From positions 8,711 to 47,242 of the forward strand of contig PMUN01000076.1 of the NCBI GenBank assembly GCA_003166875.1: a DNA stretch of 38,532 bases, in the 5' to 3' direction. The notes beneath the pieces were generated by a model. That model did no database searches and was not told where the DNA came from. It saw only the letters and a list, made by a program, of their open reading frames with translations. The stretch is from Bryobacterales bacterium (lineage in GTDB: Bacteria; Acidobacteriota; Terriglobia; Bryobacterales; Bryobacteraceae). How positions within the stretch are numbered: position 1 is the stretch's first letter; the number at the start of each line of letters is the position of its first letter. The translations under genes were made by a program, and so were the position numbers. Below, piece after piece: positions 16,957 through 38,460 of this stretch.

Positions 16957-16970
16957 TGTAATCGCTTACA
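16957..16970. promoter_or_regulatory. Candidate LacI-family operator (TGTAATCGCTTACA) upstream of GH31
   Basis: 13/14 match to TGTAAGCGCTTACA; followed by an extended -10-like TGTCATAAT at 16985-16993. Confidence 0.8.
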
Positions 16971-17008
16971 GCGCAGTACAGACGTGTCATAATGTTCAAA
17001 GTCTTCCC

Positions 17009-19228
17009 ATGAGAATCTCTCGACGGAACTGGATGCAAGCGGCCGGAGCGGCAGTTTTTGCGCACGGGCAAGCTGACGCGGAAGAAAAACGATTACAGAT
17101 CGCAGGCCGCGAAGTGGAGATCCAACTCGCGCCTGTGAGTGCATACACCTTCCGCCTATCTGTCGTGCCAATCCAGGATGGGAAGGCTGCCGAACTTTCC
17201 TCAGATGGGTCACTAGTGGAGCGATCCTGGGCTGCTCCCGCGGCCAAACTCCGCGAGGCGTTTCGAAAGCAAACCGTGAAGCTGGGCGCGCTGCGCGTCA
17301 AAGTGACGCTTGACCCATTAACGTTCGCCGTCGAAACATATTCCGGGGAGTTGGTACAACAGCTCAAGATCGATAACGAAAGCGGCTCCGTCACTTTCGC
17401 TACCCTCAGCGTGCCAATTCTGGGGTTGGGCGAGGGCGGACCGCAATTCGACCGGCGCGGATCAACCGATCGGATGCGTAGCGGACAGGGCGGCTATCAG
17501 TTGCGAACGCATGGCGGCCGAGTCCCGATTCCTTGGCTGATCGGAACTTCCGGCTGGGCGATGTTTTTCCATCAGCCTTTCGGCACGTTCGATTTCACCG
17601 GCGCTGAAAGCAGCTTCCATCCCGCGTCGCCCGCTGCAGCGCTGCCGCTCGACATTTTTGTTGTTGCCTCGCGGGACCCGCAAACTATCATGTCCGAATA
17701 CGCCGGATTGACGGGTCATCCCGAATTGCCACCGCTGTGGAGTCTTGGCTATCAGCAATCGCATCGCACACTGGCCGGGCCCGAGCAGCTCCTTGAGGAA
17801 GCCCGCACGTTTCGTGAAAAAAAGCTGCCCTGCGACGCCATGATCTATTTGGGTACGGGATTCTGTCCTTCCGGCTGGAATACCAACAACGGAGAGTTTC
17901 AGTTCAACCAAAAGGTCTTCCCGGATCCAAAGGCGATCTTCGAGCAACTGCATCAGGAGCATTTCAAGGTGGCGCTGCACGTGGTGATTAAAGCGCGGGC
18001 GATGCATGGCACGGTGCATGATGCCTGCGATCCGAAACAGCCGGTCGAGGAGCAGCCAAGCTGTTATTGGGCTGAGCACCGCGACATTTTTTCGCTCGGT
18101 GTGGATGGCTGGTGGCCCGACGAGGGCGACCCGTTGAACATTGCTTCGCGCTTGGTGCGGAACCGAATGTACTGGGAGGGGCCGCAGCTCGATCGTCCCA
18201 ACGAACGGCCCTATGCGCTGCACCGCAACGGCTACGCGGGCATGCAGCGCTACGCTTCGTTCCTTTGGTCGGGCGACGTGTACTCCACGTGGGAGACGCT
18301 GCGCACTCACATTCCGATCGCCGTCAATACGGGGCTAACCGGCATTCCTTATTGGGGCACCGATATCGGCGGTTTCGTCCCCACCAAGGAATTCACGGCG
18401 GAACTTTATGTCCGGTGGTTCCAGTTCGGGGCATTTTGTCCGTTGTTCCGATCGCATGGCCGCAACTGGACGCTGCGACTTCCCTGGGGTTGGAACACCG
18501 GTGATTCGGGCCCCCTGGAAATCAACAACTACAATGGCGCCGCGCTGCCGGATGCGAGTGAGTTGCACAACGCTCAAGTGGAGCCGATCTGCCGCAAATA
18601 CCTGGATCTGCGATATCGCATGCTGCCCTATTTATACAGCGCGGTGCGGGAGTGTACGGTGTCGGGGCTGCCGGTAATGCGCGGATTGTGGCTGCATTAT
18701 CCCGACGATCCTGCCGCGGTTGCGCGCGCGGACGAGTATTTGTGGGGCCGCGATATCCTGGTGGCGCCGGTGACCGAGCAAGGGACGGCTTCGCGGCGTA
18801 TCTACCTTCCCCGCGGAGTTTGGTACGATTTCTGGACCAATGAACGGCAGGATGGCGGCCGCGAAATCCCTCGCGACGTGGATTTGGAGACCATGCCGCT
18901 CTACGTGCGCGCCGGAGCTATCCTGCCGCTTGGTCCGGTGAAACAGTACACTGGCGAGCAGGTGAACGAGCCGCTCACGTTCTCAATCTATCCGGGCGCC
19001 GATGGTTCGTTCCTGCTATATGAGGACGATGGCAGTTCGTTTAACTATCGCAAGGGTGAATGGATGGGAATCGAGATGAATTGGAGCGATCGCCAACGCT
19101 TGCTGCGCCTCACTTTGGCCAAAGGCTCTCGCATGCTACCACCATCGCGCCGTGATCTCGTCGTGAAGTTGGGCGACGCCACGCGCCGCGTCGTTTTCGA
19201 TGGACATCCCGTGGAGGTTCGATTCTGA
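17009..19228 (+). CDS. GH31 family glycoside hydrolase, Tat-type signal
   Basis: ATG at 17009 gives [24 protein letters not shown]; the track start 16805 would overlap the divergent gene. GH31-like '[15 protein letters not shown]', nucleophile region '[14 protein letters not shown]', '[11 protein letters not shown]', '[34 protein letters not shown]'. Confidence 0.9.
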
Positions 19229-20739
19229 TGCATCGCATTCTTCTCGTTCTCATTGCCGGTGGGCTGATGGCGCAAACGCCGCCGGCTCGAATCAAGATCG
19301 ATATCGACCGCACTATTGGCGAAGTTGATCCGCTGCTGTTCGGAAATTTCGCCGAGCACCTGGGCCGCATGATTTACGGCGGCATCTATGAAGAGGGCAG
19401 TCCGCTCTCAGACAAAGACGGCTATCGGACCGATGTGATGGATGCGGTGAAGAAGCTGGGCGTGTCCATTCTTCGATATCCCGGCGGCAATTTCTCATCC
19501 GGCTACAACTGGACGGATGGAATCGGTCCCAAGGACCAGCGGCCGGTGCGCGTCGAGCTGGCCTGGAACGCTCTGGAGAGCAATCGCTTCGGGACCGACG
19601 AGTTTCTTCGCTATGCAGAACGCATCGGCGCGGAGCCTTACATCTGCATCAACGGCGGCCTGGGCACCGTCGACGATGCGCGGCACTGGGTGGAGTACAC
19701 CAACGAGTCGCGCCATACTTACTGGGCCGACCAGCGCCGCAAGAACGGGCGTGACGAACCGTACAAGGTGAAATATTGGGGGCTCGGTAACGAGATCGAT
19801 GGTCCGTGGCAACTGGGACACAAGAACGCTGAGGATTATGCCAAGTTCGCGCTCGAAGCGGCGAAGGCCATGCGACTAGTGGATGATTCCATCAAGCTGG
19901 TGGCCAGTGGATCGAGTAATTACGGCGCGGACTGGATCGGATGGAATCGCACCGTGCTGAACGCTTTGCGTAACGAAATCGACTATATCGCGCTGCACAC
20001 CTACATCAACAACCGCGACAACGATCTGGAGAAGTTCCTGGGCTGGTCGCAGAGAATCGACTATTACATCGAAACCACCGCAGGCGCCATTCAGGCCACG
20101 CAATCCGGACCGAATCCCCGGCCGATTTACATCGCCTACGACGAATGGAATGTCTGGTATCGCGCCGGGAACAACGAACATCTTGAGGAGACTTACAATT
20201 TCGAGGACGCTTTGGCCATGGGGATGTTTTTCAACTCGTTCTTCCGCCATGCGGACGTGGTGAAGATGGCGAACCTGGCGCAATTGGTGAACGTGATCGC
20301 GCCCATCATGACCAACAAGCAGGGTTTGTTCTTGCAACCGATTTATTTTCCAATCCTCGAGTACGGCAAACAGCGCGGCAACGTGGCGCTGAACGCGTGG
20401 GTGGCATCGCCAAAATACACTTTGAATCGCCGCGAGCTTCCCTATCTCGATGTTTCGACGACGTACAATTCGAAAGATCACGCCGTGTACGTGAACGTTT
20501 TAAATCGCAGCAAGTCGCAGGACATTGCTACGCGTATCGAAAACCAGGAGGGAATACTGACGCCGGATGTCGCGGTCTGGCAGATGAACTATCCGGATTT
20601 GAAGGCGACGCACACATTCGGCGACGACAAAAAGGTCGTGCCTAAGACGAGCACGCTGACGGCGTCGTTATCGAAGAACAGCCTCGTTTACACGTTCCCG
20701 GCACACTCGTTGACGATCCTGCGCCTGCGGTTGGAATAG
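19228..20739 (+). CDS. Alpha-L-arabinofuranosidase, GH51-like, secreted
   Basis: '[68 protein letters not shown]', '[19 protein letters not shown]' (acid/base), '[13 protein letters not shown]' (nucleophile). TGATG start/stop overlap with GH31. Confidence 0.95.
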
Positions 20740-20806: not shown

Positions 20807-21496
20807 CTACGGCTGGCCGTACGTCGCTTTCGGCCCGTGCTTCCGGAAATGGTGCCTGTCGCGCAGCGCTTCAGAGATCGGTTGCGCGGCGGGATTGATG
20901 GCGAGAGTCTGCCAGGCCATCGCCGCGAGTTCCTCGACAATCACAGCCGCATGCGCGGCATCGGCCACTGATTTTCCCCAGCAGAACGGTGCGTGTCCGG
21001 CCACCAACACGGCCGGGCAACCCAGCGGACCGTGCCCCTCCATCGCGCGCACGATCGCGAGACCGGTGTTGGCTTCGTATCCGGATTCGATTTCGTCGGG
21101 AGTAAGCGGCGCCGTCACCGGAATGGGACCGTGGAAATAGTCGGCGTGCGTGGTGCCGAAGCACGGAATCTCACGGCAGGCTTGCGCCCACGCGGTAGCG
21201 TGACGGGAATGAGTGTGCGCGACGCCGCCAATGGATGGGAAGGCCCGATACAGCGCCAGATGCGTTTCAAGATCCGTGGAAGGCCGCAGAGTGCCCTCCA
21301 CCACGCGACCTTCCAGGTCCGCGATCACCATGTCGGCCGCCGTAATTTTCTCATAAGGAACGCCGCTGGGCTTGATGACCACGAGACCATCCGGGCGCGA
21401 AATTCCGCTGGCGTTTCCGAACGTGTAGATCACCAAGCCGCGGCGAACCAGTTCGAGATTCGCTTCGAGAACTTCAGCCCGCAGCGCTTCCAGCAC
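20807..21496 (-). CDS. araD: L-ribulose-5-phosphate 4-epimerase
   Basis: GTG start at 21496 preceded by GAGGAGG; 'YTFGNASGISRPDGLVVIKPSGVPYEKI', 'GGVAHTHSRHATAWAQACREIPCFGTTHADYFHGPIP', terminal 'HGPKATYGQP'. The first 82 residues of the track ORF overlap araB and look like non-coding frame. Confidence 0.95.
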   Translation of the reverse strand: MLEALRAEVLEANLELVRRGLVIYTFGNASGISRPDGLVVIKPSGVPYEKITAADMVIADLEGRVVEGTLRPSTDLETHLALYRAFPSIGGVAHTHSRHATAWAQACREIPCFGTTHADYFHGPIPVTAPLTPDEIESGYEANTGLAIVRAMEGHGPLGCPAVLVAGHAPFCWGKSVADAAHAAVIVEELAAMAWQTLAINPAAQPISEALRDRHHFRKHGPKATYGQP

Positions 21497-23057
21497 TCTG
21501 GCCTCCTCGTGCACTGGCTGTGATCCGGCGGAGTTCCGGCAAACTATTGTCGCTCTGCCCAAGAGTGAAATACAGCTTTCGAAAGAGCGGGTACAACTCG
21601 CGGTACACCGCGGCAGCCGATTCCTCCGGAGCGACGATCTCGTAGCCGGGGCACAGCGCATCCTGCGCTTCCTCGATACTGGCGAAAGCGCCCGCGGCGA
21701 GAAACGCGAAGATGGCCGAACCGAGACTGGTCGCGTCTCCACTCGGAACCAGGATGGGCTTTTGCATCACGTTGGCGTACACCTTGTTCAGCACGGGATT
21801 CTTCTGCGGAATACCGCCGCCATTTATGATGCGGCGCACCGGCACACCGTGCTCCTCCATGCGCTCCAGGATCACGCGAGTATGAAAGGCTGTGCCCTCG
21901 ATGGCCGCGAACAGTTCGTCCTGGGCCGTGTTCGTCAGCCGCCAGCCGAGCGTGACGCCGCTTAGCTCCGGGTTCACCAGCACGGTACGGTCGCCGTTGT
22001 CCCAAGTGAGGCGCAGCAGGCCGGTTTCGCCGGCGCGATAATTTTCTAAACCTCGTGACAGTTCCGCGACGGTGGTTCCTGCGCGCCGCGCGATGGCATC
22101 GAAGATATCGCCGGTGGCCGAGAGGCCGGCTTCGATGCCAGTGAATTTGGGATGCACCGATCCCGGCACTACGCCACAGACGCCGGGAATCAGCGCCGGT
22201 TTCTCGCCGATCGCCATGATGCATGTGGAAGTGCCGACCACGTTTACGACATCGCCAAGCCGCACGCCGGCACCGATGGCATCCCAATGCGCGTCGAAAG
22301 CACCGACTGGAATCGGGATGCCCGCGCGAAGCCCAAGTTTTTCCGCCCACGCCGGCGCCAGATGGCCTGCGATCTGCTCCGACGTTGCATAGCGGCCGTC
22401 CAGCTTGGCGCGAACTCCGGCCAACAATGGATCGAGAGAAGTCAGGAAGTCCTCCGGAGGAAAACCGCCGAGCGACTGGTTCCACATCCACTTGTGGCCC
22501 ATGGCGCAAATACTGCGCGACACTTGCCGCGGATCGCTGATTCCGCACAGAACGGCCGCGACCATGTCGCAATGTTCCAGAGCAGTCGCAAAGCGGTCGC
22601 GTTTTTGCGGATTGCCCCGCAGCCAGTGCAGCAGTTTCGCGAAACCCCATTCGGAGGAATAGATGCCGCCGCACCAGTTGATTGCGTCCAGCTTCCGTTC
22701 GCGCGCGAGGGCGGTGATCTGGGCGGCTTCCTTCCAGGACCGATGATCGCACCACAGATAATAATCGTCGAGCGGTTCGAGATTTTCGTCTACTGGGATG
22801 ACGCTGGAACCGGTGGTGTCGAGCGCGATGGCTTCAATCGCGCGGCCTGGTACGCCGGCATCCGCGAGGGCTCGCCGCGTAGCTTCGGCCAGGGCACGCA
22901 TGTGATCCGCGTGACTCTGCGTAGCGTGGTCGGGATCGTCCTTCTTGCGGACCAGCGGATACTCCGCTATTCCGGCGCCCAGCCTGCCGCGTGCGCTGTC
23001 GAAAATCGACACCCGCACGCTGAGCGTTCCGAAATCGACACCTGCGACAACACTCAT
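21474..23057 (-). CDS. araB: Ribulokinase (FGGY family)
   Basis: MSVVAGVDFGTLSVRVSIFDS...; 'ALDTTGSSVIPVDENLEPLDDYYLWCDHRSWKEA', 'GAFDAHWDAIGAGV', 'IINGGGIPQKNPVLNKVYANVMQKPI'. Confidence 0.95.
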   Translation of the reverse strand: MSVVAGVDFGTLSVRVSIFDSARGRLGAGIAEYPLVRKKDDPDHATQSHADHMRALAEATRRALADAGVPGRAIEAIALDTTGSSVIPVDENLEPLDDYYLWCDHRSWKEAAQITALARERKLDAINWCGGIYSSEWGFAKLLHWLRGNPQKRDRFATALEHCDMVAAVLCGISDPRQVSRSICAMGHKWMWNQSLGGFPPEDFLTSLDPLLAGVRAKLDGRYATSEQIAGHLAPAWAEKLGLRAGIPIPVGAFDAHWDAIGAGVRLGDVVNVVGTSTCIMAIGEKPALIPGVCGVVPGSVHPKFTGIEAGLSATGDIFDAIARRAGTTVAELSRGLENYRAGETGLLRLTWDNGDRTVLVNPELSGVTLGWRLTNTAQDELFAAIEGTAFHTRVILERMEEHGVPVRRIINGGGIPQKNPVLNKVYANVMQKPILVPSGDATSLGSAIFAFLAAGAFASIEEAQDALCPGYEIVAPEESAAAVYRELYPLFRKLYFTLGQSDNSLPELRRITASARGGQSAGSAAG

Positions 23058-23198: not shown

Positions 23199-24602
23199 TC
23201 AGGTAGATGCATGCTGAAGCACGCTCCAACCCAGGTAACGCGTGGCAGCTTCGTGCACGGCAGGCGCTACCTGCGACAAGTTGGCCGCGACGTGATGTTC
23301 AAAGCCGCGCTCGCAAATATATCGCAACAGCTCCTGCAGCTTTGGAATGCGGACCACTCCGGCCCCGCCGAACGTATCCAAGGGGTCGTCAGTGAATTCG
23401 CCTTCGCCGACGTAGCCGCGGATCGACCCGGTGCGATCGTCGGTTGAAAAACGCGCGTAGCTCATTGGCCCGGATTTTACGCGTCCCACACAGGTCCCAA
23501 AAGTGTTCTCTTTACCCACCGTGCCGGCGATGATCTCTTGAAAGTCCATGCGCACTTCCTTGAAGAAGTGCTTGGGAAGATTGCTGCAATGGAAGCACAC
23601 GGCCTTATCCGGATCGTCACCGTAATTGTTGTTCCAATCGAGCAACGCGCTGGGCGTCTGCGATGCAAGCTGCAGAGCGTGCATGCCCACTACGCCGCAA
23701 ATATCCACCTCGCAGGCGCTGGACATGAGGTTCTCACTCATCATGCTCATGACGGTGCACGGCACGACACCGAAGTACTCTTCGAGCGACGTCCAGCACT
23801 GGACGGCGCTGATGGAGACATCAGTTTCCTTCATCCACCCGTCCACCACCGCGCCTAGCTTAGCCATCTTGAGCAGTGCTTCAGCGGGGACGCGATCGGT
23901 GGACACGTAGCGCTGGATCTGGTCCAGCTTGGCCTGGGCGGCGGAGTCCTGGTCTTTCATGCGCGCGATCCTGCCGAGAATTTCGGAAAGATCGATGGTC
24001 TCAACCGAGATCCCGTTGGCTTCCAGGATTTTTTCGCTGTAGCGTACGGTGTTGAAAGCCGCGGGGCGCGCGCCGATGGCTCCAATGCGCAAGCGGCGAA
24101 GACCTCGCGCGACGCGGCATACCGCCGCGAACCAGTCCAGATCTTTGCGAAAGAAATCGGAATCCGGCGCCTCGGTGTGACGAGTGGTCAGCGAGTACGG
24201 GATGCCGTACTGCGTCAGGTTGTTGCACACCGACATTTTGCCGCAGAAGCTATCGCGCCTATCGCGAATGGTCATGCGCCCCGGTGTGTCCGGCGTCGCC
24301 TGCACCAGAACCGGCACGTTCAGGCCCGCGATTCTCAGCGTGTCCGCGACCGCGCGTTCATCGCCGAAGTTGGGCAGCGTGACGATGACGCCATCAATCT
24401 GATCGCGATGCCGCTGAAACAGCTCCGCGCATCGCACGGCCTCCGCTCGAGTCTCCACGGCTCCGAATTTAGTCTCTTCCGGGCTGACTGCAACCACGCC
24501 ATGGCCCGACTTTTCTATGGCTGCGATCATTTCCACCCGGCCACTTTTTGCAAGATGGTCGGGAAAGAAGCCCCGGTTTCCCACGATCACGCCAAAGGTC
24601 AT
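23199..24602 (-). CDS. L-fucose/L-arabinose isomerase family protein (non-classical, FucI/AraA-type fold); probable sugar isomerase of the pathway
   Basis: ATG at 24602 (MTFGVIVGNRGFFPDHLAKSGR...); 'NFGDERAVADTLR', 'CWTSLEEYFGVVPCTVMSMMSENLMSSACEVDICGVVGMHALQLAS', 'DWNNNYGDDPDKAVCFHCSNLP'. Immediately upstream of araB-araD. Confidence 0.82.
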   Translation of the reverse strand: MTFGVIVGNRGFFPDHLAKSGRVEMIAAIEKSGHGVVAVSPEETKFGAVETRAEAVRCAELFQRHRDQIDGVIVTLPNFGDERAVADTLRIAGLNVPVLVQATPDTPGRMTIRDRRDSFCGKMSVCNNLTQYGIPYSLTTRHTEAPDSDFFRKDLDWFAAVCRVARGLRRLRIGAIGARPAAFNTVRYSEKILEANGISVETIDLSEILGRIARMKDQDSAAQAKLDQIQRYVSTDRVPAEALLKMAKLGAVVDGWMKETDVSISAVQCWTSLEEYFGVVPCTVMSMMSENLMSSACEVDICGVVGMHALQLASQTPSALLDWNNNYGDDPDKAVCFHCSNLPKHFFKEVRMDFQEIIAGTVGKENTFGTCVGRVKSGPMSYARFSTDDRTGSIRGYVGEGEFTDDPLDTFGGAGVVRIPKLQELLRYICERGFEHHVAANLSQVAPAVHEAATRYLGWSVLQHAST

Positions 24603-24606
24603 CGGA

Positions 24607-24819
24607 TTACCGGCCTCTCCACGGTGAAAATCGGACTGAATAAAGCGTACCAAGCAAGATTAGGAGCAGCCCCCACCAGATTCCCGCGTGCAATTCGGCC
24701 AGAACCACCGCCGGTGGATGCGACAAGCCGTAGAGACCGGCGCCGAGAATCAGGATTCCATAGATCAGCAGCAGCGTGCCCACAAAAAACCAGATGGAAA
24801 TCATTCCGGAACGATGCAT
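24607..24819 (-). CDS. Small two-TM membrane protein
   Basis: 70 aa with two hydrophobic stretches (ISIWFFVGTLLLIYGILILGAGLYGL; IWWGLLLILLGTLYSV); packed between the symporter and isomerase genes. Confidence 0.72.
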   Translation of the reverse strand: MHRSGMISIWFFVGTLLLIYGILILGAGLYGLSHPPAVVLAELHAGIWWGLLLILLGTLYSVRFSPWRGR

Positions 24820-24826
24820 GTTTCCT

Positions 24827-26557
24827 TTACCAGAAAATGATATTCAAGATCACGAACACTACGCCGACTACGCATGCCCAGAATATCGGACGCTGATAAA
24901 CTGGGACACCGCTTTCCGACGGCAGCTTGGTGTACCCGTAAACCAGCCCGGTCAGCTCTTCCACAGGCTTGGGCCGAGTCATGTAGCTGACCACCACGGT
25001 AACTATGACGCACACGATCCACGACCATAGCGCGCGATACATATTCTCCGCCATATCCTTGGCTTTCGGCGACAGCGCGACGTACTGCAAGGCAGCCGGA
25101 TTGATCTTCACCCAAGCCCACAGGCCAATCGCCGAACACGTACCCGACAGCAGGCCCCAGAATCCACCAGCCGGCGTTGTGCGGCGCCACAACATCCCGA
25201 GCAGCACTGTGCCGAAGAGCGGCGCAACAAAAAAGCTGAATAGCGCCTGGACGTAGTCCATGATGCTGTGGAACTGCATCACGAAATAGGCCGTGCCTAT
25301 GCTCACCAAAACGCCCAGCAGAGTACACCAGCGTCCTACTGAGACATAGTGCGCGTCGGGGGCTTCTTTCCGGAAAAACGGGCGATAAATGTCGTAGGTC
25401 CAGACGGTTGCGAATGCGCTCACGTTTCCAGCCATGCCGGACATGAATCCAGCCATCAAAGCCGTGATGCCGAGGCCGAGAAGACCAGGGCCGCAATATC
25501 GCGCCAGCATGATCGGCAGCACTTCATTATAGCTGTGGCTGCCAGTAGCCGAGGCCTGGTCTGCCCCAACCAGGTGCTCAGGAAGCACCGCCAATCCAAG
25601 CAGTCCCGGTAGAATTACGATGAAGGGGACCATCATCTTGAAGCCGGCGCCGATGATGGGCGCCATTTTCGCCGCGCGGAGATCCTTGGCCGCAAGAACA
25701 CGTTGGACCACCAGGAAGTCCGTGGTCCAGTAGCCGAACGAGATCACCCAGCCGAGCCCGAACACGATCCCGATCCAATGAATGCCCATTGGATTATCGC
25801 CGAAGGAGCCGAGGGTGCTCCACAAATGGGTGTAGCTCGGTCCCGGAAAATTATGCGCAATTCGCGCCACCATGCCGTTCCAACCACCCGTCTCGATCAA
25901 GCCGATGATGGAGATCAGCAGTGCGCCAAACCAGATCAAAACGAACTGTAACACCTCATTGAAAATGGCAGACAGTAGACCGCCGAGAAATACGTAGAGC
26001 CCTACGGTAAGCGACGAGACCCAAATACTGAAGTGGATATCCCAACCAAGCACTACTTTCAGAACCAGCGCCATGGAATACATGTTGATGCCGCTCATGA
26101 GTACGGTCATCAACCCAAAACAGACGGCGGCCAGTACGCGGGAGGATTCTCCGAAACGCAGCTTCAGATAGCCCGGAACGGAATGAGTTTTCGAAATGTA
26201 ATAGAACGGCATCATCACCAGGCCCAGAAAGAGCATGGCCGGTATGGCGCCGATCCAGTACCAATGCGTGGCCAGAATCCCGTACTGATATGCAGCGGCC
26301 GCCCAACCCATCATCTCGAGCGAGCCCAGGTTGGCTGCCAGGAAGCTGAGACCCGCGATCCAGGCTGTCATTTCCCTGCCGGCGAGGAAAAAATCCTCGC
26401 CGGTCTTGGTGTATCGCTTCAGGTAGAAGCCGATGCTGAGGACAGCGACGAAGTAGAGGGCGATGATCGCCATGTCCACGCCGGAGAGCGAAACCAGGCG
26501 CGAGGCGCTTTGAATGAGGATGGCTGGGAGCAAGGGCATGGTGTCGGATAGAGTCAA
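24827..26557 (-). CDS. Sodium:solute symporter (SSS) family sugar transporter
   Basis: 'DFFLAGREMTAWIAGLSFLAANLGSLEMMGWAAAAYQYGI', 'GGLLSAIFNEVLQFVLIWFGALLISIIGL', 'GYWTTDFLVVQRVLAAKDLRAAKMAPIIGAGFKMMVPFIVILPG'; many hydrophobic segments. Confidence 0.93.
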   Translation of the reverse strand: MTLSDTMPLLPAILIQSASRLVSLSGVDMAIIALYFVAVLSIGFYLKRYTKTGEDFFLAGREMTAWIAGLSFLAANLGSLEMMGWAAAAYQYGILATHWYWIGAIPAMLFLGLVMMPFYYISKTHSVPGYLKLRFGESSRVLAAVCFGLMTVLMSGINMYSMALVLKVVLGWDIHFSIWVSSLTVGLYVFLGGLLSAIFNEVLQFVLIWFGALLISIIGLIETGGWNGMVARIAHNFPGPSYTHLWSTLGSFGDNPMGIHWIGIVFGLGWVISFGYWTTDFLVVQRVLAAKDLRAAKMAPIIGAGFKMMVPFIVILPGLLGLAVLPEHLVGADQASATGSHSYNEVLPIMLARYCGPGLLGLGITALMAGFMSGMAGNVSAFATVWTYDIYRPFFRKEAPDAHYVSVGRWCTLLGVLVSIGTAYFVMQFHSIMDYVQALFSFFVAPLFGTVLLGMLWRRTTPAGGFWGLLSGTCSAIGLWAWVKINPAALQYVALSPKAKDMAENMYRALWSWIVCVIVTVVVSYMTRPKPVEELTGLVYGYTKLPSESGVPVYQRPIFWACVVGVVFVILNIIFW

Positions 26558-29690: not shown

Positions 29691-32123
29691 CTATTTCACC
29701 TTCCATTTTTGAATGCCGGCCGACCAGTTTGGCTGCATGGTTACTTCCAGGCGCAGACCTGTGGTGGCGACGGGCTGGAACGTAATCGTGTTGTAGACGT
29801 CCCTGGCAACGCCGTAAGGATTGAGTGCGGCCACCGGCTTCCAGGCATCTCCGTCTTTGTATAACAGACGCCACGAAGCGGGAACGCGGACCTCACCGCG
29901 GCCAGTGTCGTCGAACCAATAGAGCTGGCACTGGGAGACCGTGGCCGGCTTTTCGAAAGCGTATTCCACCCATTCGGCCGTGCCTTTGGTGGGCCACCAG
30001 TCGAAGTAGGACGATGAATCATTCGACGAAGCTGGTTCCTCGCCGTCGTTAATCGTCCGCGGACTCCTGCGCCTGGCGCCCGACACCGTCACCTGCGCCG
30101 TGGTGGCAAGGGTTGGGTACGGGGCCGGTTTCGCAAAGCCCTCGGTCTCTGGGAACCACACCATCATTTGTCCGCGACCGCGATTCGCCCAGGCGTAATA
30201 GGGGATCGCGGTGAACTCCTGCTCGGTCTTGGTGACCTTTCCTTGCGCATCGTAAGCCAACGCGATCGCCCGGCCTTTTACCACGGTGACCCCGCGCAGT
30301 AGATCGGGTTTGAACTCGGCCAGCAAACGTTCGCTACGTGGCAGCATCAAATTCCGGACCTGTCCTTTGGGATTATCAGGCCACTCCGCAGCGTAAACGA
30401 TGGGACCTCGTTCCAGCGCGACGCGTCCGCGGTCCGCCGCAACGTGATCGTTCGCGATGACGCGCCGGATCGGCATCGGCAGGCTGAGCTGGATGACGTC
30501 GCCTTGCTTCCAGTTGCGAGTGAGCGCGACGTAGCCTTTGTCGAGCTGAATAGGCACCGTTTTGCCGTTGACCTTCAGAACCGCCGCATCCGGGGACTCG
30601 GACTCGAAACGATAAAGGTCGCTCGCCACCGGTTCGTTGCGGGCCCAGCCGGGAATTCTCACATGGATCGTCATCGGAGCCGTCGCGTCCGGATTCACGG
30701 TCATCTTTACCGTACCGTCCCACGGGTAGCGGGTTTCCTCGGTCATCTTCACGGTTCTACCGTTGTCGAGTTTGATTTCGGCTGTGTTGGCAACGTACAG
30801 ATTCACCCACACCGAATCGCCGCGCTGCGCGTAAATGTAGCCGGGCACCGATGCCATGAAGCGCGTGATGTTCCCAGGACAGCAGGCCACGCCGAACCAC
30901 GGGCTGCGCTGGTCCTTGCCCGCAAATCCAGTCGCCTCCAATGGGTTTTGATAAAAGAATGTCGTGCCGTCTAGCGAGACGCCCGAGATCAGGCCATTGT
31001 AGAGCGTTCGCTCCATCACGTCGATGTATTTTGCATCGGCGTGGAGCAGGAACAAACGGTGGTTCCAATAATCGTTGCCTACGGCCGCGCAGGTTTCGTT
31101 GTAGGCAGTGAGATTGGGCAGCTCGTAGTCAGCGCCAAACGCTTCGCCCGCGCCGCGAGCCCCGATCCCTCCGGTGATATGCAGCTTCCGACCCGCCACG
31201 TTCTCCCATATCTTGTCGAGTGCTTGCACATAGGCGGTGTCGCCGGTGAGCGCGGCCACGTCCGCCATTCCCGAGTACATGTATGTGGCGCGCACCGCGT
31301 GCCCGCCGGTCACTGCTTCGGTCTGGTCAACGACTCTCTGCTGTGCCTCGACGTAAGGATTTCCGGCGCCTTTTTCGCTACTCTGGGGACCACGCGAATC
31401 CAACATAAACTTGGCGAGGTTGAGATAACGCGGATCGCCGGTAACGCGGTACAGCTTGGCGAGTCCCATTTCGACGATCTGATGGCCGGGCCAGATTTCC
31501 TGCTTCCCGGGGCCGAAGGTGCGGTCCAGCAGATCCGCAGTGCGGAGGGCGATGTCCAAAAGTGTTCTCTTGCCGGTGGCTTGATAGTGCGCCACGGCCG
31601 CTTCATAGAGATGGCCCAGGTCGTACAACTCGTGGCTGTCCACTCCTTCAAGAATCCAGCGCTGATTGCCGGACCAAGGATGTGGATGCGCCGGATCGAT
31701 GGTGCGTGCAGTGTAGAGATAGCCGTCCTTTTCCTGCGCCGCGCCGATCTTCGCGATCAGGTCGTCGATATACGCTTCAAGCTGTGGATCGGGATGAACA
31801 CTGAGGGTGTAGGAAGCGCCCTCGATTACTTTGTAGACATCGGTGTCGTCGAAAGGGTAGGGCGGATACTTGTGGTTCTCGAATGGTTCGCCCCGAAGCG
31901 CTTTCGCGGCGCGGATAAAATTGTCGACGCGTCCAGTCTCTTCATCCTTTTTGAAGGCGAACGGAATGGTCACCGTGCGATTAATCTCGATGCGCGGCGC
32001 CCAGAATTCGTCGTTCACATGGACCGCCGTGAAGGGGACTGGTTTTACCGGGTAGTCGCGGTTCTGGGCCCACACTCCCTGGCCAACGAACAGCCATGCT
32101 GTCGCTACTGTAACCGCTTTCAT
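29691..32123 (-). CDS. GH127 beta-L-arabinofuranosidase with C-terminal discoidin/F5-8-type-like domain, secreted
   Basis: 'NETCAAVGNDYWNHRLF' and 'FGVACCPGNITRFMAS' match the E-x-C and CC Zn/nucleophile motifs of HypBA1-type GH127; C-terminal 'NDSSSYFDWWPTKGTAEWVEYAFEKPATVSQCQLYWFDDTGRGEVRVPASWRLLYKDGDAWKPV' is discoidin-like. Confidence 0.92.
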   Translation of the reverse strand: MKAVTVATAWLFVGQGVWAQNRDYPVKPVPFTAVHVNDEFWAPRIEINRTVTIPFAFKKDEETGRVDNFIRAAKALRGEPFENHKYPPYPFDDTDVYKVIEGASYTLSVHPDPQLEAYIDDLIAKIGAAQEKDGYLYTARTIDPAHPHPWSGNQRWILEGVDSHELYDLGHLYEAAVAHYQATGKRTLLDIALRTADLLDRTFGPGKQEIWPGHQIVEMGLAKLYRVTGDPRYLNLAKFMLDSRGPQSSEKGAGNPYVEAQQRVVDQTEAVTGGHAVRATYMYSGMADVAALTGDTAYVQALDKIWENVAGRKLHITGGIGARGAGEAFGADYELPNLTAYNETCAAVGNDYWNHRLFLLHADAKYIDVMERTLYNGLISGVSLDGTTFFYQNPLEATGFAGKDQRSPWFGVACCPGNITRFMASVPGYIYAQRGDSVWVNLYVANTAEIKLDNGRTVKMTEETRYPWDGTVKMTVNPDATAPMTIHVRIPGWARNEPVASDLYRFESESPDAAVLKVNGKTVPIQLDKGYVALTRNWKQGDVIQLSLPMPIRRVIANDHVAADRGRVALERGPIVYAAEWPDNPKGQVRNLMLPRSERLLAEFKPDLLRGVTVVKGRAIALAYDAQGKVTKTEQEFTAIPYYAWANRGRGQMMVWFPETEGFAKPAPYPTLATTAQVTVSGARRRSPRTINDGEEPASSNDSSSYFDWWPTKGTAEWVEYAFEKPATVSQCQLYWFDDTGRGEVRVPASWRLLYKDGDAWKPVAALNPYGVARDVYNTITFQPVATTGLRLEVTMQPNWSAGIQKWKVK
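32109..32122. promoter_or_regulatory. Operator-like sequence at the GH127 start codon (TGTAACCGCTTTCA)
   Basis: 12/14 match to TGTAAGCGCTTACA, overlapping the first codons of the GH127 gene. Confidence 0.35.
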
Positions 32124-32198: not shown

Positions 32199-34520
32199 TC
32201 AAAAGAACGATGCCGCTTCGTCAATTTCGATCGGTTCATTGGCAAGCAACGAAGCTACCAGCTCCGCGATCTTGGAATCCCGGTTCCAATCCGGCGGCTC
32301 AACTCCCAACAGGTGGTGGACGAAGAAATCATATCGCTTGCGGTCTCCGTAGGGTCCACCGTTGCCATGATTCGCCCCGGGGATCACAAGCAGATCGAAT
32401 GTCTTCTTGTTCTTGATGAGGGCGTTGACTACCTGCATGGTAGACGAGGGATCTACATTGGTGTCCATCTCGCCGACAAGCAGCAGCAAGTTGCCTTGCA
32501 GCCGGTAGGCATTCTCGGTATTCGAGCACGCGATGTACTCGGGCCCGAGAGGCCATCCCATCCACTGCTCATTCCACCAGATTTTATCCATGCGATTGTC
32601 GTGACAACCGCAGGACGCGACGCCCGCTTTGTAAAACTCGGGATGAAACAACAAGCCACCCAGAGCGCTCTGCCCGCCTGCGGACGTACCGTAGATGCCC
32701 ACGCGACTGATGTCGTACCAGGGGTATTTGGCTGCCACCGCCTGGTGCCAGAGAATTCGATCGGGGAAACCTGCATCAGCCAGGTCCTTCCACGCCACGT
32801 CGTGGAACGCCTTAGATCGGTTCGAGGTGCCCATGCCGTCGATCTGAACGACGATGAAGCCCAGCTCTGCCAGGGATTGCATTTGGCTATAAGCGCTGAA
32901 GGACTTGGGAACAAAAGAATCCTGCGGGCCGGCGTAGATGTTTTCAATCACCGGATATTTCTTGGAAGGATCGAAGTTGGACGGCTTTACGATCACACCC
33001 CAGATGGCGGTCTTGCCGTCGCGGCCGGCCGCGGTGAAGACTTCAGGCGCACGCCAGCCGGTTTTCGGCAGCCCTTCGATATCTCCACGCTCGATTTCCG
33101 TAACCGCCTCTGGATCATCCAACCTGTGCAGTTCGGATACAGGCGCCGTATCCACGCGCGACCAGGTGTCGACGAAATACTTGCCGTCCTCTGAAAAAGC
33201 TGCTGTGTGATTGCCATCGCCAGGCGTCAGCAGCGTGAGGCCGGAACCATCGAAGTTAATGCGGTAGTAGCTGACGAAATAAGGATCCTTGCCCGCATAC
33301 ATGCCGCTCGCGTGAAACCAGATTTGCCGTTTCTCGTCATCGACATGATCCACGCCGCGGACCACCCAATTGCCTTTCGTGATCTGGTTCTTTACTTTGC
33401 CGGCCGCGCCATCGTACAAGTAAAGGTGATTCCATCCGTCGCGCTCGGACATCCACACGATTTCCTTGCCGTCGGCGGCATCGTGCCGATATTTCTTGCC
33501 GGAATAACAGAAGAACGTCTTGGATTCCTCATTGATGATCGCGCGTGCTTTTCCGGTAGCGGCGTCCACTTCGATGACGCGGTAAGCCTGGTGTCCGCGT
33601 TGGTTGTACTCGAACGTAAACGCGCGGCTGTCCTTCCACCAAACGGGTGGCGAGAGTTCGTAAGGATTCGGAAACAGGCCGTTGTCGATTGCGATCTGCT
33701 TCTTTTCGTCGACCAGAAAAAGCATAGGTTGCTCGAGATCCAGAACATCGCCGGGTTTCGCGTACTCGATGGTTGCGTATTTCGGTTGCAACTGATCGGC
33801 CGGCGAGGATTCGACGTAGTGCACTTCGCGGCGATATCCGGGACGCACACGATAGGCCACCAGCTTCTTGGAATCGGGCGACCACGCGACGGAGATCGAC
33901 GCATAGTAGTTGTCTTCCGAACCATCCAAGCTCAGCATCGTGCCTTCCGTCTTACCCTTGGGCCGGACATAGATGTTGAAGTTTTTGATCAGGGCTTCCG
34001 AGTTCCCATCTGGTGAAGCCACTGGGCGATTCTCTTCCTGCACCACTTGCGCCCGATTCCGAAAAGGCTCACCCGCGCGGCGTCCCAGCGTGCCAGCTTT
34101 TTCGCAAGCGTATTCCGCAAGCGAGCACTTCCACCTGAATTCAGCCGCTACGACTTCGATGAAATGCTCGTGATCCACGAATCTGATGGTGGAAAAGGGC
34201 AGCGTGACGGAGGTGAAGCTGGCTCCGGCAGCTTTGGAAAGCGACGCCGCTAGTTTCTCATGGTCGAAGGCGGGAGATTTCGCGTTGGTACCCGCATCCA
34301 CCATCACAAAGGCGTGCCCGCCTGGCACGGACTTCCGGTACCAAAACCGGTTGCCCTCCAACCAAGTCGTTTTCTCGGGGATGTTCAGCGCTGCCGCCTC
34401 ATACTTGGCTCGAAGCCCGGCCGCGCGTTGGTAATCGGCCAGCGTTCCTTGCGCGTGGGTGTCTCGCGGCAGGGATAAAGTGAGGACCACTGTTGTCAAA
34501 AGCAGTAGCGTGTAATTCAT
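32199..34520 (-). CDS. S9-family (DPP-IV/prolyl oligopeptidase-like) serine hydrolase, secreted
   Basis: ATG at 34520 with SD GGAGG ([24 protein letters not shown]). DPP-IV-like propeller '[46 protein letters not shown]'; '[37 protein letters not shown]', '[24 protein letters not shown]', '[10 protein letters not shown]' provide Ser/Asp/His. Confidence 0.9.
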
Positions 34521-34569
34521 GCAGCCTCCTTTATGTCCCCTTGCTGACGCGCGGGGCTCCAAATAGCGA

Positions 34570-36300
34570 TCACCACTCCAGTTCCAGCAAGGATACAGCT
34601 TCCCGCGGCAATTCGAAATTGATGTCGACGGCTCCGCCGGTGCTGCGCAACCAACTCGGTGATTCGAGCAGCGTCAACTGGCCGGCAGCTTCCAGTTCCG
34701 CGTATTGCTTGGGCGTTGGCATTTGGGGCGACCCCATTCGCTTCCAGGTTGTGAATGCATTGCTGTGGCCGCTGTCGATGCGATAGTGACGGAGCAGCAC
34801 AGGCGTCGTTCCCACAGGCAACCCTGCAACGTGGAGCTTCACGGAAGACGGTGGGGCTTCGACGTCATCATCGTGGTAATTCCAAACCAACACCGCGGCA
34901 CGGGATTGCGCCTTGCTCGCAAGAGCGTTGATATCCGGCTCTGATCTAACCCCTGCCTCTAAGACACGCCCGGTATTCACGGCTCCATCACTCGATGCTT
35001 CCACGCGTTCTCCCGTCATCAGGCCGAGCATCCGGAACAAATTCATCACCGGCTTCGAGACACCATTGGTCGCGAGCGTTCGGAAGCCTTCGAACCAAGG
35101 CTGATCTTCAAATTCGAAGGCCCAGGTGACAGTTCCGGCCAAGCGCACCTTGTGGAGCGCGGCGAGTTCGAGCGTGTGGTGGAACATCGCCGCCGTGTAG
35201 CTCGAATACAGAGGCCCGTTGCGATAGGCATTTTGCGGATTGGTTTTGGCCGAGCAGGCGGCGCAGCCCTCGGGATCGGACTCGCCGATAATGATTGGTT
35301 TGTCTCGCAACTCAGGGAAACTAGCGACGATCTCAAAACCACTCGAAATATTTCGGGCCTGACTGCGAATGCCCATCTCAACGTACCCATCCAGCATGCG
35401 CGGATTGCCTTTGGCGTGAAACCCGACGTAATCGAGAGGCGATCCCGTCTTTCCGGTCGCTAGATTCTTTCCGTGCAGCGCGTGTTCCAGAAAACCGCGC
35501 AGGAAATTGGCCGCCTGCGGAGATGCCGGCCCAGTGCAATGCGGTCCGCCGATGCGCGCCGTGGGTAGGGCGCGCTTCACGGCGTCGGCGGCGAAGTCAT
35601 AAAGCTTGTAATATTCCTGGGGAGTTCCTTGCCAGTAACCGATGTCCGGCTCGTTCCACACTTCCCAATACCAGCTCTCTACTTCCCGCGCGCCATATCG
35701 TTCCGCGCAATGACGCGCCCATTGATAAACCAGCTCCGCCCAGGCGTGATAATCTTTCGGCGGGTAGGCCCAGCCACTCCACAACGAGCCGACGGGGAAG
35801 GTGTGCCGGTAAGGCTGGGGATGCGTGGACAATGCCTCCGGCATGAAACCAATCTCCACCAGCGGCTTCACGCCGGTTTGCTGATAGGAGTCAAAGATCC
35901 GGTCAAGTATGCTCCAGTCATAGACAGGATGCCCGGCGGCATCTTCGGTATATGCATTGGTAGATCCCCACTTCAAGGAGGCTGCGCCATCGCCGGATGT
36001 AAGCAAATTGTGAGTGCGGATGTAAACGGGCGAAGGGCTGGCCGCTGACAGCGCTCGGAGTAGCTTGCGGCCGTTCTTCGCATAGGTATAGTTTGGCTCG
36101 TCGTAGCCGAAGAAGGTCCAGGCTGGGTTCCATGTCCCGCGCGAGACCGCCAGGTCGACAACAATCGAAACCGGTTGCTGCCCGAACAGAGACACTCCCC
36201 CGGCGAGCAAAGCTACGAGATAGGTCGTCGTGAGCAAGCGCTTACAAATTCTCTCTGATGTGATGGTTCCTGTCAATGGGCCCCTGGAAAACTGCTGCAC
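34570..36300 (-). CDS. GH39-like glycoside hydrolase, secreted
   Basis: '[43 protein letters not shown]' (acid/base E) and '[40 protein letters not shown]' (nucleophile E). Track start is GTG at 36300; TTG at 36237 would give the tidier signal peptide [20 protein letters not shown]. Confidence 0.85.
36233..36246. promoter_or_regulatory. Candidate LacI-family operator (AGCAAGCGCTTACA) at GH39 start
   Basis: 12/14 match; 88 bp centre-to-centre from the site at 36321-36334 in the divergent region. Confidence 0.7.
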
Positions 36301-36320
36301 GCTCTGCTACGCTAGAACAC

Positions 36321-36334
36321 TGTAAGCGATTACT
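36321..36334. promoter_or_regulatory. Candidate LacI-family operator (TGTAAGCGATTACT) upstream of FAD oxidoreductase
   Basis: 12/14 match; reverse complement AGTAATCGCTTACA is near-identical to the GH31 site. Confidence 0.75.
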
Positions 36335-36368
36335 TTGCACCTCTCTTCAAGTTTCGTACCTTAAATTC

Positions 36369-37529
36369 ATGACCACGGCAGATGTAGTGATTGTCGGCGG
36401 CGGTATCGTCGGAGCCAGCATCGCCTATCAACTTACCAAGGCTGGCTGCCGCAACGTCCTGATCCTGGAACGCGAAGCTCACCAGGGCAAAGGCTCGACG
36501 GGCAAAAGCATGGGCGGCGTGCGAGCCCAGTTCTCTACCGACGTCAGTATTCAGATGTCGCTTTACTCTATTCCTTTTTTCCGTGACTTCGAAGACGCGC
36601 TGGGCCATCCGTCCGGTTACTGCGCCCAGGGCTATTTGTTCGTTGCGGCCAGCTCTACACACCTCAATTATCTGCGCGCCAATCACGCGCGGCAGGCCGC
36701 GATGGGTCTCACCACGGCGCGACTTCTCGATCCTGAGGACGTAACGCGGATGGTGCCGCAGTTGCGCTCGGACGACATCGTAGGAGGCAGCTTCTGCTCC
36801 ACAGACGGGTTTGTGGATCCGTACAGCATCATGACCGGATTCACGCTGCGCGCCATCGATCAGGGCGCCCGGTTGGAGCGCGATGTCACCGTAACCGGCA
36901 TCCAAAAGGACGTGCGAGGGATCACCGCTGTGGAGACGTCTCAAGGTGGTCCAGTGGCGACGCGGATCGTAGTGAATGCCGCCGGAGCTTGGGCGTCCCA
37001 GATAGCTGGCATGGCCGGACTGGATCTTCCGGTTGAGCCGCTGCGGCGGATGCTGGTTCCCACCGAGCCCTTCGACAAAATCGCCCATAGCGCGCCCATG
37101 ATCATCGACATGTCCACCGGCTTCCACTTTCGTCCGGAAAGTTTGGGGCTGTTGCTGGCCTGGAACGATCCTGAGGAGACACCCGGATTCAAGACTAACT
37201 TCGATCGAGCGTTCGTAGAGAAAATCTTGACGCACGCGGTAAGCCGCGTACCAGTGCTCGAAGAGGTGGAGGTGAATCCATCACGAGCCTGGGCCGGGCT
37301 GTATGAGATGACGCCCGACCATCATCCCATCCTGGGCGAAGCGCCGGGCATCGCTGGATTTTACTGCGCCAACGGATTCAGCGGGCACGGAGTGATGCAT
37401 TCGCCCGCCACTGGGAAAATCCTGGCGGACCTGATCCTGAAGGGCTCGACGGAGCTGATTGACGCGCGGCTCTTGAATTATTCGCGCTTCGCGGAAGGGC
37501 GCCTGATCGAAGAAACCGCTGTCCTATAG
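36369..37529 (+). CDS. FAD-dependent oxidoreductase, DAO / sarcosine oxidase beta / proline dehydrogenase-like
   Basis: ATG at 36369 (MTTADVVIVGGGIVGASIAYQLTKAGCRNVLILER: GxGxxG Rossmann); 'GSTGKSMGGVRAQFSTDVSIQMSL', 'GAWASQIAGMAGLDLPVEPLRRML', 'WAGLYEMTPDHHPILGEAPGIAGFYCANGFSGHGVMHSPATGKILADLI'. Confidence 0.9.
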   Translation: MTTADVVIVGGGIVGASIAYQLTKAGCRNVLILEREAHQGKGSTGKSMGGVRAQFSTDVSIQMSLYSIPFFRDFEDALGHPSGYCAQGYLFVAASSTHLNYLRANHARQAAMGLTTARLLDPEDVTRMVPQLRSDDIVGGSFCSTDGFVDPYSIMTGFTLRAIDQGARLERDVTVTGIQKDVRGITAVETSQGGPVATRIVVNAAGAWASQIAGMAGLDLPVEPLRRMLVPTEPFDKIAHSAPMIIDMSTGFHFRPESLGLLLAWNDPEETPGFKTNFDRAFVEKILTHAVSRVPVLEEVEVNPSRAWAGLYEMTPDHHPILGEAPGIAGFYCANGFSGHGVMHSPATGKILADLILKGSTELIDARLLNYSRFAEGRLIEETAVL

Positions 37530-37539
37530 GAGAAATCGA

Positions 37540-38460
37540 TTGTCTCTGCTTGAGGGAGTATTCTCGGTCTTACCAACTCCGTTCTTGGACGATGGAGCGC
37601 TCGATATCGAGAGCTTGTGCCGCGTGGTGGATCTGTTCATCGCCGCTGGAGTGAACGGTCTCACGGCACTGGGCGTTACGGGCGAGGTAGCGCGGTTGAA
37701 CGACGTGGAGCGCCACACCGTTCTTGAGGCCGTGATCGATCAAGCGGCAGGGAGAGTAGCTGTGGTGGCCGGCGCCACTTCCGACGGTCTCCGCACTTCG
37801 ATCGAATATACACGCGCTGCAAAGGACACAGGCGCAGCCGCGGTGATGATCAGTCCCCCGCGCATGGCGAAGCTCAACTCGGACGCAGTGGTGCGTCACT
37901 TCGCCGGTGTGGCTGAAGCGGTGGACATTGAGATCGTGGTCCAGGATTTTCCGCCCATCTCCGGATTTACCATGGAGCCGGCTCTGTTGGCGCGCATCAC
38001 CCGTGAGATTCCTCGAGCGCGGACCATCAAGCTGGAAGATCCTCCGACACCTTTTAAGACAACGCGGATTCTCGAAGCCACGAAAGACATCCCGGTTCGT
38101 ATCTTCGGCGGACTGGGCGGCGTGTTTCTGCTGGAGGAATTGCTCGCCGGCGCGACCGGAGCCATGACCGGCTTCGCTTACCCCGAGATCCTAGTCGAGA
38201 TCATAAGTGCATTCCGTTCTGGCAACGTAGACCACGCCGCGGATGTGTTCTATCGGACCGTCCCTCTGATGAGGTTCGAGTTTCAAGAAGGTATCGGGAT
38301 GGCTATACGCAAAGAGGTGCTGCGCCGGCGAGGGGCACTGGCGACCGGCGCGCTACGGGCTCCCGGCGCCAAGCTGGATGCTGTCACTATCGCCGCACTC
38401 GATCGGGTACTGGCCTGGGTGCATTCGAGCTATCCCATGAAAATGGAAGCTTCGAAATGA
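37540..38460 (+). CDS. DapA / N-acetylneuraminate lyase-superfamily protein (dihydrodipicolinate synthase family)
   Basis: TTG start with AGGAGA upstream; 'GVFSVLPTPFLDDGALDIESL', 'LGVTGEVARLNDVERHTVLE', Schiff-base Lys region 'ARTIKLEDPPTPFKT', 'GATGAMTGFAYPEILVEI'. Confidence 0.9.
   Translation: MSLLEGVFSVLPTPFLDDGALDIESLCRVVDLFIAAGVNGLTALGVTGEVARLNDVERHTVLEAVIDQAAGRVAVVAGATSDGLRTSIEYTRAAKDTGAAAVMISPPRMAKLNSDAVVRHFAGVAEAVDIEIVVQDFPPISGFTMEPALLARITREIPRARTIKLEDPPTPFKTTRILEATKDIPVRIFGGLGGVFLLEELLAGATGAMTGFAYPEILVEIISAFRSGNVDHAADVFYRTVPLMRFEFQEGIGMAIRKEVLRRRGALATGALRAPGAKLDAVTIAALDRVLAWVHSSYPMKMEASK

What the first reader, a model, noticed from the sequence alone, without database searches (positions are those of the whole stretch)
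16957..38460. Candidate hydroxyproline-rich glycoprotein (extensin-type) utilisation locus: arabinoside hydrolases, S9 peptidase, araBD pathway, FAD dehydrogenase and DapA-type lyase under one LacI operator
Seen: two tandem GH127, GH51, GH39, GH31, an S9 peptidase-like protein, SSS transporter, isomerase, araB, araD, then a divergent FAD-DAO-type oxidoreductase plus DapA-family gene. The divergent pair carries its own copy of the operator (36321-36334). Established: characterised GH127 HypBA1 acts on the beta-L-arabinofuranosides attached to hydroxyproline in extensin; Hyp-Araf4 carries a terminal alpha-Araf that an alpha-L-arabinofuranosidase must remove; bacterial hydroxyproline catabolism uses an FAD-dependent D-hydroxyproline dehydrogenase followed by a DapA-family deaminase. 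Inference: the locus may take both the glycan (Ara to xylulose-5-P) and the Hyp backbone of plant cell-wall glycoproteins. No endo-arabinanase is evident, consistent with side-chain or oligosaccharide targeting. Competing reading: FAD + DapA act on an oxidised sugar acid; the DapA protein also resembles L-2-keto-3-deoxyarabonate dehydratases (VQD..., GATGAMTG..P).
Basis: partly seen in the sequence, partly recalled or inferred. Interest (0 to 1): 0.85.

Follow-up and report, generated by a model that had tools for sequence, protein, structure and literature searches.

The report
Arabinoside regulon with proline-pathway enzymes
A soil acidobacterium keeps, under one sugar-sensing switch, enzymes that strip arabinose from plant material together with two enzymes whose relatives keep turning up beside proline and hydroxyproline breakdown genes, which suggests (but does not prove) that it eats both the sugar and the protein part of plant cell-wall glycoproteins.

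Summary
In detail: a LacI-operator regulon of arabinosidases (GH31, GH51, GH146, GH127, GH39), an S9 peptidase, transporter, isomerase and araBD, with a divergent FAD-DapA pair under its own operator. One 'GH127' is a GH146. Of 10 near-perfect operators in the 8-Mb genome, 6 lie here (chance about 8 genome-wide); one precedes a TonB receptor at 9602. The genome shows no hydroxyproline epimerase, and the DapA has the Gln signature of L-2-keto-3-deoxyarabonate dehydratase. Yet comparative genomics points back to imino acids. Of 37 orthologous DapA loci in several phyla, 24 carry proline dehydrogenase, 21 an SDR directly downstream, 7 cis-3-Hyp dehydratase, 3 trans-3-Hyp dehydratase and 2 trans-4-Hyp dehydratase. 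The same SDR is adjacent to GH127 in three genomes, and to Xaa-Pro peptidase, GH51 and arabinose genes in a fourth. I favour hydroxyproline-rich glycoprotein use through a non-canonical imino-acid route (about 0.5). No step after arabinose release is shown biochemically.

The parts
5729..9586 (-). TonB-dependent receptor (CarboxypepD_reg + OMP_b-brl_4), likely outer-membrane importer of the regulon
   Evidence: Pfam; operator 9602-9615 16 bp upstream of its ATG
9602..9615 (.). LacI-type operator, 1 mismatch
16957..16970 (.). LacI-type operator, perfect, upstream of GH31 (ATG 17010)
16805..19228 (+). GH31 alpha-glycosidase (start more likely ATG 17010)
   Evidence: PF01055 etc.; best PDB 6jr6
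19228..20739 (+). GH51 alpha-L-arabinofuranosidase
   Evidence: PF06964; PDB 1pz3 7e-118
20807..21592 (-). AraD, L-ribulose-5-phosphate 4-epimerase (exact start unsure)
21474..23057 (-). AraB, ribulokinase
23199..24653 (-). L-fucose-isomerase-like protein, presumed L-arabinose isomerase
   Evidence: PF02952; no AraA_N in genome; beside araB/araD in G168
24827..26557 (-). Sodium:solute symporter
   Evidence: PF00474
26569..26582 (.). LacI-type operator upstream of the symporter operon
26616..27635 (-). LacI-family repressor
   Evidence: orthologue 84% in G150 cluster
27679..27692 (.). LacI-type operator upstream of lacI
27698..29686 (-). GH146-type beta-L-arabinofuranosidase
   Evidence: ExC at 371 and CC at 440 as in the GH127/146 zinc site
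29691..32123 (-). GH127 beta-L-arabinofuranosidase
   Evidence: ExC at 343, CC at 414
32109..32122 (.). LacI-type operator overlapping the GH127 start
32199..34562 (-). S9 peptidase (DPPIV_N + Peptidase_S9)
   Evidence: next to DapA in G150
34570..36300 (-). GH39 glycosidase (start probably inside, near 36240)
   Evidence: next to or near DapA in G122, G155, L190
36233..36246 (.). LacI-type operator, 2 mismatches, at GH39 start
36321..36334 (.). LacI-type operator upstream of the FAD-DapA pair
   Evidence: sites before FAD or DapA also in G150, G122, L190
36369..37529 (+). FAD-dependent oxidoreductase of the DAO/SoxB family, candidate imino-acid dehydrogenase
   Evidence: PF01266; best PDB 1y56_B 1.7e-53; tree
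37540..38460 (+). DapA-family protein, Gln-type (VQD) with Schiff-base Lys
   Evidence: PF00701; tree; signature; contexts

Best explanation
The locus is a LacI-repressed utilisation regulon for plant arabinosides, most likely of hydroxyproline-rich glycoproteins (extensin or arabinogalactan protein). Proposed working: a TonB receptor brings glycans or glycopeptides in; GH127 and GH146 remove beta-L-arabinofuranose, GH51 alpha-arabinofuranose, and GH39/GH31 further caps; the S9 peptidase cuts the peptide. Arabinose enters by the symporter and goes through a FucI-like isomerase, AraB and AraD to xylulose-5-phosphate. The divergent FAD-DapA pair is co-regulated and handles the imino acid: the FAD enzyme oxidises proline/hydroxyproline (the role PRODH has beside the DapA elsewhere), and the Gln-type DapA enzyme dehydrates a Schiff-base-bound 2-keto-4-hydroxy product towards the 2-oxoglutarate level. 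Shown by sequence: gene families, operators, clade positions, gene linkages. Inferred: substrate, every reaction of FAD and DapA, and the order of steps.
For: Regulon confined to this locus and including FAD-DapA; operator-like sites also precede FAD or DapA in three other genomes (G150 2 mm, G122 1 mm, L190 1 mm). DapA orthologues (58-95% identical, one clade 100/100) lie beside PRODH in 24 of 37 loci, an SDR in 21, OCD in 10, AcnX (cis-3-Hyp dehydratase family) in 7, a trans-3-Hyp-dehydratase-type protein in 3, and a glycyl-radical trans-4-Hyp dehydratase (above cut-off) in 2. The SDR of the same family is next to FAD in G193 and G180, to GH127 (69-79% to the window's) in G122, G155, G172, to P5C dehydrogenase in G155, G046, G198, and to an M24 Xaa-Pro peptidase + GH51 + araD + SSS + isomerase in G142. 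FAD lies just upstream of isomerase-araB-araD in G168. The nearest solved relative of FAD is 1y56_B, which I recall as the P. horikoshii L-proline dehydrogenase beta chain; the entry calls it sarcosine oxidase. GH146 includes Araf-beta1-Hyp enzymes (PMC10850190), and the Xanthomonas HypBA cluster has an adjacent prolyl oligopeptidase gene (PMC6085000).
Against: The own genome (94.7% complete) lacks the SDR orthologue and any PF05544 protein; its PRODH is the common 41% type. FAD orthologues are often solitary, and no operator precedes FAD in G166 or G168. GH127/GH146 also act on arabinan, AGP and RG-II, so the glycan target is open. GH121 (HypBA2), part of the known extensin systems, is not among the regulon genes. 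Many linkages come from related genera, so independent events are fewer than loci. The P5CDH-SDR link is absent from the window. No biochemical or expression data.
Confidence: 0.5

Rival explanations
1. Arabinan/AGP side-chain utilisation locus; FAD-DapA process an oxidised sugar acid, the DapA being an L-2-keto-3-deoxyarabonate-dehydratase-like enzyme feeding 2-oxoglutarate semialdehyde.
For: DapA shares the Tyr-to-Gln exchange described for Gln143 of the A. brasilense enzyme (PMC9795676) and lies with it in one 100/99 superclade. Sister DapA genes in the order sit in MFS/GntR/enolase-superfamily operons (read by eye).
Against: No arabinose dehydrogenase or arabonate dehydratase family among the window genes scanned; AraB-AraD already serve arabinose. 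The GxxGE-type motif (GVTGE) is kept, unlike ANFSE in the A. brasilense enzyme. Orthologues sit with PRODH and Hyp dehydratases, not with sugar-acid genes.
Confidence: 0.2
2. Ordinary arabinoside locus; FAD-DapA are captured bystanders with an unrelated role.
For: FAD orthologues in 37 of 200 genomes are mostly solitary. FAD and DapA are adjacent only in the window lineage; they are 9 kb apart in G150 and on different contigs in G122 and G155.
Against: Own operator copy, operator-like sites at FAD or DapA in three other genomes, DapA-GH39 linkage in several genomes, SDR-GH127 and FAD-araBD links.
Confidence: 0.2
3. Canonical bacterial trans-4-hydroxyproline route (HypE, D-Hyp dehydrogenase, Pyr4H2C deaminase) fused to an arabinoside locus, as first proposed.
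For: DAAO + DHDPS pairing is the textbook neighbourhood of HypE (PMC4113996).
Against: Both proteins excluded from the clades found in true HypE operons (AU p 0.0003 and 2e-5). All 11 Hyp-operon DapAs carry Tyr (YNxP), the window clade Gln. No PF05544 protein and no other DapA above 29% to the Hyp type in the genome. G133 carries both FAD types.
Confidence: 0.07

Closest known systems
Hydroxyproline-rich glycoprotein arabinoside systems: B. longum HypBA1/HypBA2/HypAA and Xanthomonas euvesicatoria XCV2724-2729
   Same: GH127/GH146 beta-L-arabinofuranosidases, an alpha-arabinofuranosidase, and (Xanthomonas) an adjacent prolyl-oligopeptidase gene (PMC6085000, PMC10850190)
   Different: Here GH51 instead of GH43, no GH121, plus arabinose catabolism, a LacI operator series and an FAD-DapA pair
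L-hydroxyproline gene cluster (LhpA-LhpL; HypE-DAAO-DHDPS-ALDH)
   Same: FAD oxidoreductase plus DapA-family partner; orthologues sit near AcnX, OCD and trans-3-Hyp dehydratase types (PMC5144071)
   Different: No epimerase seen; DapA and FAD from other clades; Gln instead of Tyr in DapA; SDR and PRODH as the usual partners
L-2-keto-3-deoxyarabonate dehydratase of Azospirillum brasilense (7c0c, 3fkk)
   Same: DHDPS fold family, Schiff-base Lys, Gln replacing the aldolase Tyr, GAMTG motif
   Different: Distant (phmmer E 1.4e-35), GVTGE motif retained, different gene neighbours
Predicted HRGP use in Latescibacteria single-cell genomes (PMC4454575)
   Same: GH127 taken as a sign of extensin use
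   Different: In the passages read, no regulon and no imino-acid step tied to the arabinosidase

Membership tests
Canonical trans-4-Hyp pathway (LhpA/B/C type) | Proline-racemase-family 2-epimerase (PF05544) in the genome | tested here: not met
   0 matches in own genome (94.7% complete) while 93 of 200 relatives have one
Canonical trans-4-Hyp pathway (LhpA/B/C type) | DapA in the clade of Hyp-operon deaminases | tested here: not met
   Tree and AU test p 0.0003; Gln versus Tyr signature
Canonical trans-4-Hyp pathway (LhpA/B/C type) | FAD protein in the clade of Hyp-operon dehydrogenases | tested here: not met
   Tree and AU test p 2e-5; long branches present
Canonical trans-4-Hyp pathway (LhpA/B/C type) | 2-oxoglutarate semialdehyde dehydrogenase | not tested
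   None within about 19 kb downstream by eye; genome not searched
HRGP arabinoside degradation system | GH127/GH146 beta-L-arabinofuranosidase with ExC...CC zinc/nucleophile site | tested here: met
HRGP arabinoside degradation system | Alpha-L-arabinofuranosidase for the terminal residue | tested here: met
   GH51; the known systems use GH43
HRGP arabinoside degradation system | GH121 beta-L-arabinobiosidase | tested here: not met
   Not among regulon genes scanned by Pfam; not searched genome-wide
HRGP arabinoside degradation system | Activity on Hyp-linked arabinosides | not testable with these tools
   Needs enzyme assay
L-2-keto-3-deoxyarabonate dehydratase | Schiff-base Lys and Gln in place of Tyr | tested here: met
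   with PMC9795676
L-2-keto-3-deoxyarabonate dehydratase | Replaced substrate-binding motif (ANFSE in place of GxxGE) | tested here: not met
   GVTGE in the window protein
Canonical araBAD pathway | AraA-type L-arabinose isomerase | tested here: not met
   PF02610 absent from genome; FucI-like protein in its place
Dipeptidyl peptidase IV | Glu motif binding the free N-terminus | tested here: inconclusive
   That stretch of DPP4 is gapped against the window protein

The most novel reading that the evidence does not exclude
A previously undescribed proline/hydroxyproline route uses a Gln-type DapA dehydratase, an SDR and a PRODH or SoxB-like FAD dehydrogenase. In Bryobacterales-type acidobacteria this route has been placed under the arabinoside repressor, so that one switch controls use of both the glycan and the imino-acid backbone of plant hydroxyproline-rich glycoproteins.
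Probability: 0.4. Interest if true: 0.75.

Novelty: new variant of a known kind. Interest (0 to 1): 0.6.

Why it matters
Plant hydroxyproline-rich glycoproteins are abundant, but the bacterial systems I found described take their arabinose. A regulon that pairs arabinosidases with imino-acid enzymes would be a whole-molecule route, and it gives an uncharacterised DapA-SDR-PRODH gene set, found in several phyla, a concrete substrate class to test.

Tried and rejected
Rfam on the window: nothing. Filing FAD-DapA as LhpB/LhpC: rejected by trees, signature and missing epimerase. Treating all neighbours of the second-layer DapAs (38-42%) as informative: they are sugar-acid-type operons or solitary genes and not orthologues. 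First clustering called antisense ORFs of dapA 'OCD'; corrected by tblastn with true references. An early reference called RACE1 was a wrong ORF and was replaced. Rhizobial DapA relatives (41-44%) lie with amidase/hydantoinase-type genes and gave no function, though two show DapA followed by an SDR.
Full report
OBSERVATION. The window lies in an 8.0-Mb, 485-contig genome (94.7% complete) at contig C70:8711-47242; a 95% DapA match on a Bryobacterales MAG (palsa_89) shares the same gene order over about 10 kb. Two names change: 27698-29686 is GH146-type (5opj 1.4e-106, HypBA1 1.6e-10), while 29691-32123 is GH127 (6ex6 2.4e-230, HypBA1 1.3e-103). The isomerase is FucI-like and no AraA_N domain is found in the genome.

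REGULON. The operator occurs 14 times (strand matches, one mismatch, pattern TGWAANCGNTTNCA) in the window against 1.1 in shuffles. With the stricter TGTAANCGNTTACA there are only 10 sites with at most one mismatch in the whole genome, 6 of them here; the reversed control gives 8, so the regulon is essentially this locus. Sites lie before a TonB receptor (9602, outside the stated coordinates), GH31 (16957), the symporter operon (26569), lacI (27679), at the GH127 start (32109) and before FAD-DapA (36321); a weaker one overlaps the GH39 start (36233). Operator-like sites also precede FAD in G150 (2 mismatches) and DapA in G122 and L190 (1 mismatch each), but none precedes FAD in G166 or G168, or DapA in G155.

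TEST OF THE HYDROXYPROLINE CLAIM AS STATED. Downstream of the window there is a convergent amidase and no racemase or semialdehyde dehydrogenase. The genome has no PF05544 protein, although 93 of 200 genomes of the order do. In those relatives, Cys/Cys epimerases lie beside an FAD and often a DapA gene, i.e. genuine hydroxyproline operons, including same-genus G133. A Thalassospira DapA 56% identical to that of G133 is next to an annotated 4-hydroxyproline epimerase, matching the published neighbourhood (PMC4113996). The window DapA is outside that clade (AU p 0.0003), the window FAD outside theirs (AU p 2e-5; long branches, so read with care). All 11 Hyp-operon DapAs have Tyr in a YNxP motif; the window clade has Gln (VQD), the exchange described for Gln143 of L-2-keto-3-deoxyarabonate dehydratase (PMC9795676). 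G133 holds both a window-type FAD and a Hyp-operon FAD, so they are different enzymes. No other DapA of the genome exceeds 29% to the Hyp type. The canonical route is therefore not supported.

WHERE THE ORTHOLOGUES POINT. A scan of about 85,000 species genomes found 40 DapA loci in Acidobacteriota, Ignavibacteria, Bacteroidetes and (a fragment) Gemmatimonadetes. In the 37 usable loci PRODH occurs in 24, an SDR directly downstream in 21, OCD in 10, AcnX in 7, a trans-3-Hyp-dehydratase-type protein in 3, and a glycyl-radical trans-4-Hyp dehydratase in 2. The last scores 1244 bits against a cut-off of 1100; AcnX (423 against 700), OCD and the trans-3 type (364 against 550) match their families but stay below equivalog cut-offs. 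Apart from these, hardly any family recurred outside near-identical genomes except GH39. PRODH and hydroxyproline dehydratases are rare genes, so this is far above chance; I did not compute a formal probability, and the seven AcnX loci are near-identical. The members in the window's family (window, G150, G122, G155, L190) are the exception: there DapA sits with GH39 or the GH146/LacI/S9/GH31 cluster. On the tree they form two groups among the proline/hydroxyproline-linked ones.

THE NETWORK. The SDR family found after DapA elsewhere occurs in 20 of 200 genomes of the order. It is next to FAD in G193 and G180; next to GH127 (69-79% to the window's) in G122, G155 and G172; near P5C dehydrogenase (TIGR01237 above cut-off for G155 and G046; G198 by similarity) in G155, G046 and G198; on the same contig as the trans-3-Hyp-dehydratase type in G150; and in G142 next to an M24 Xaa-Pro peptidase, GH51, araD, a 75% symporter and a 64% isomerase. 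Each of these genomes has at most three GH127 relatives, so adjacency by chance is unlikely, though G122/G155/G172 share a genus and may reflect one event. FAD lies upstream of isomerase-araB-araD in G168 and near lacI-isomerase in G166. Thus arabinosidase/arabinose genes and imino-acid genes meet repeatedly through three different enzymes.

MECHANISM. Shown: families, operators, clades, linkages. Inferred: uptake by the TonB receptor; removal of beta-arabinofuranose by GH127/GH146 and alpha-arabinofuranose by GH51; peptide cutting by S9 (catalytic GTSAG present; the DPP4 N-terminus motif region is missing in the alignment); arabinose to xylulose-5-phosphate. For FAD-DapA I infer imino-acid oxidation (nearest solved relative 1y56_B) followed by Schiff-base dehydration. 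Two chemistries fit: C2 oxidation to Pyr4H2C with convergent deaminase activity, or C5 oxidation via P5C dehydrogenase to 4-hydroxy-2-oxoglutarate with DapA (and elsewhere SDR) acting last. I cannot choose between them.

LIMITS. The window genome lacks the SDR orthologue, FAD is often solitary, GH127/GH146 also serve arabinan, AGP and RG-II (PMC10850190), and GH121 is missing. Xanthomonas gives precedent for a prolyl oligopeptidase gene beside these arabinosidases (PMC6085000), and Latescibacteria for predicted HRGP use (PMC4454575).

VERDICT. Observation confirmed; interpretation partly supported, by a route other than the one proposed.

Noticed in passing
window 23199-24653: A FucI-like isomerase stands in for AraA in the arabinose operon; no AraA_N domain is found in the whole genome, and its orthologue sits with araB/araD in G168.
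   Followed up: partly
window 5729-9615: TonB receptor with its own LacI operator 16 bp upstream, outside the stated finding.
   Followed up: yes
window 9752-16926: Two FG-GAP/ASPIC-like secreted proteins, TPR proteins and a VWA-like protein lie between the TonB receptor and GH31 without clear operators (a 2-mismatch site at 9681).
   Followed up: no
L213 13229-16547, L215: Glycyl-radical trans-4-hydroxyproline dehydratase and activase a few kb from DapA-SDR in Acidobacteriota MAGs.
   Followed up: partly
L142-L155, e.g. L147 8651-11717: Canonical HypE-FAD(-DapA) hydroxyproline operons are widespread in this acidobacterial order.
   Followed up: yes
L162 7977-9670, L163 8001-9712: In alphaproteobacterial plasmids the sister DapA is also followed directly by an SDR, next to amidohydrolase and Asp/Glu racemase genes.
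   Followed up: no
L049-L054: Another Gln-type DapA group in the order sits in MFS/GntR/enolase-superfamily operons, likely sugar-acid catabolism.
   Followed up: no
L040 5459-7503: The GH146 gene of G150 is split in two overlapping frames (frameshift or assembly error).
   Followed up: no
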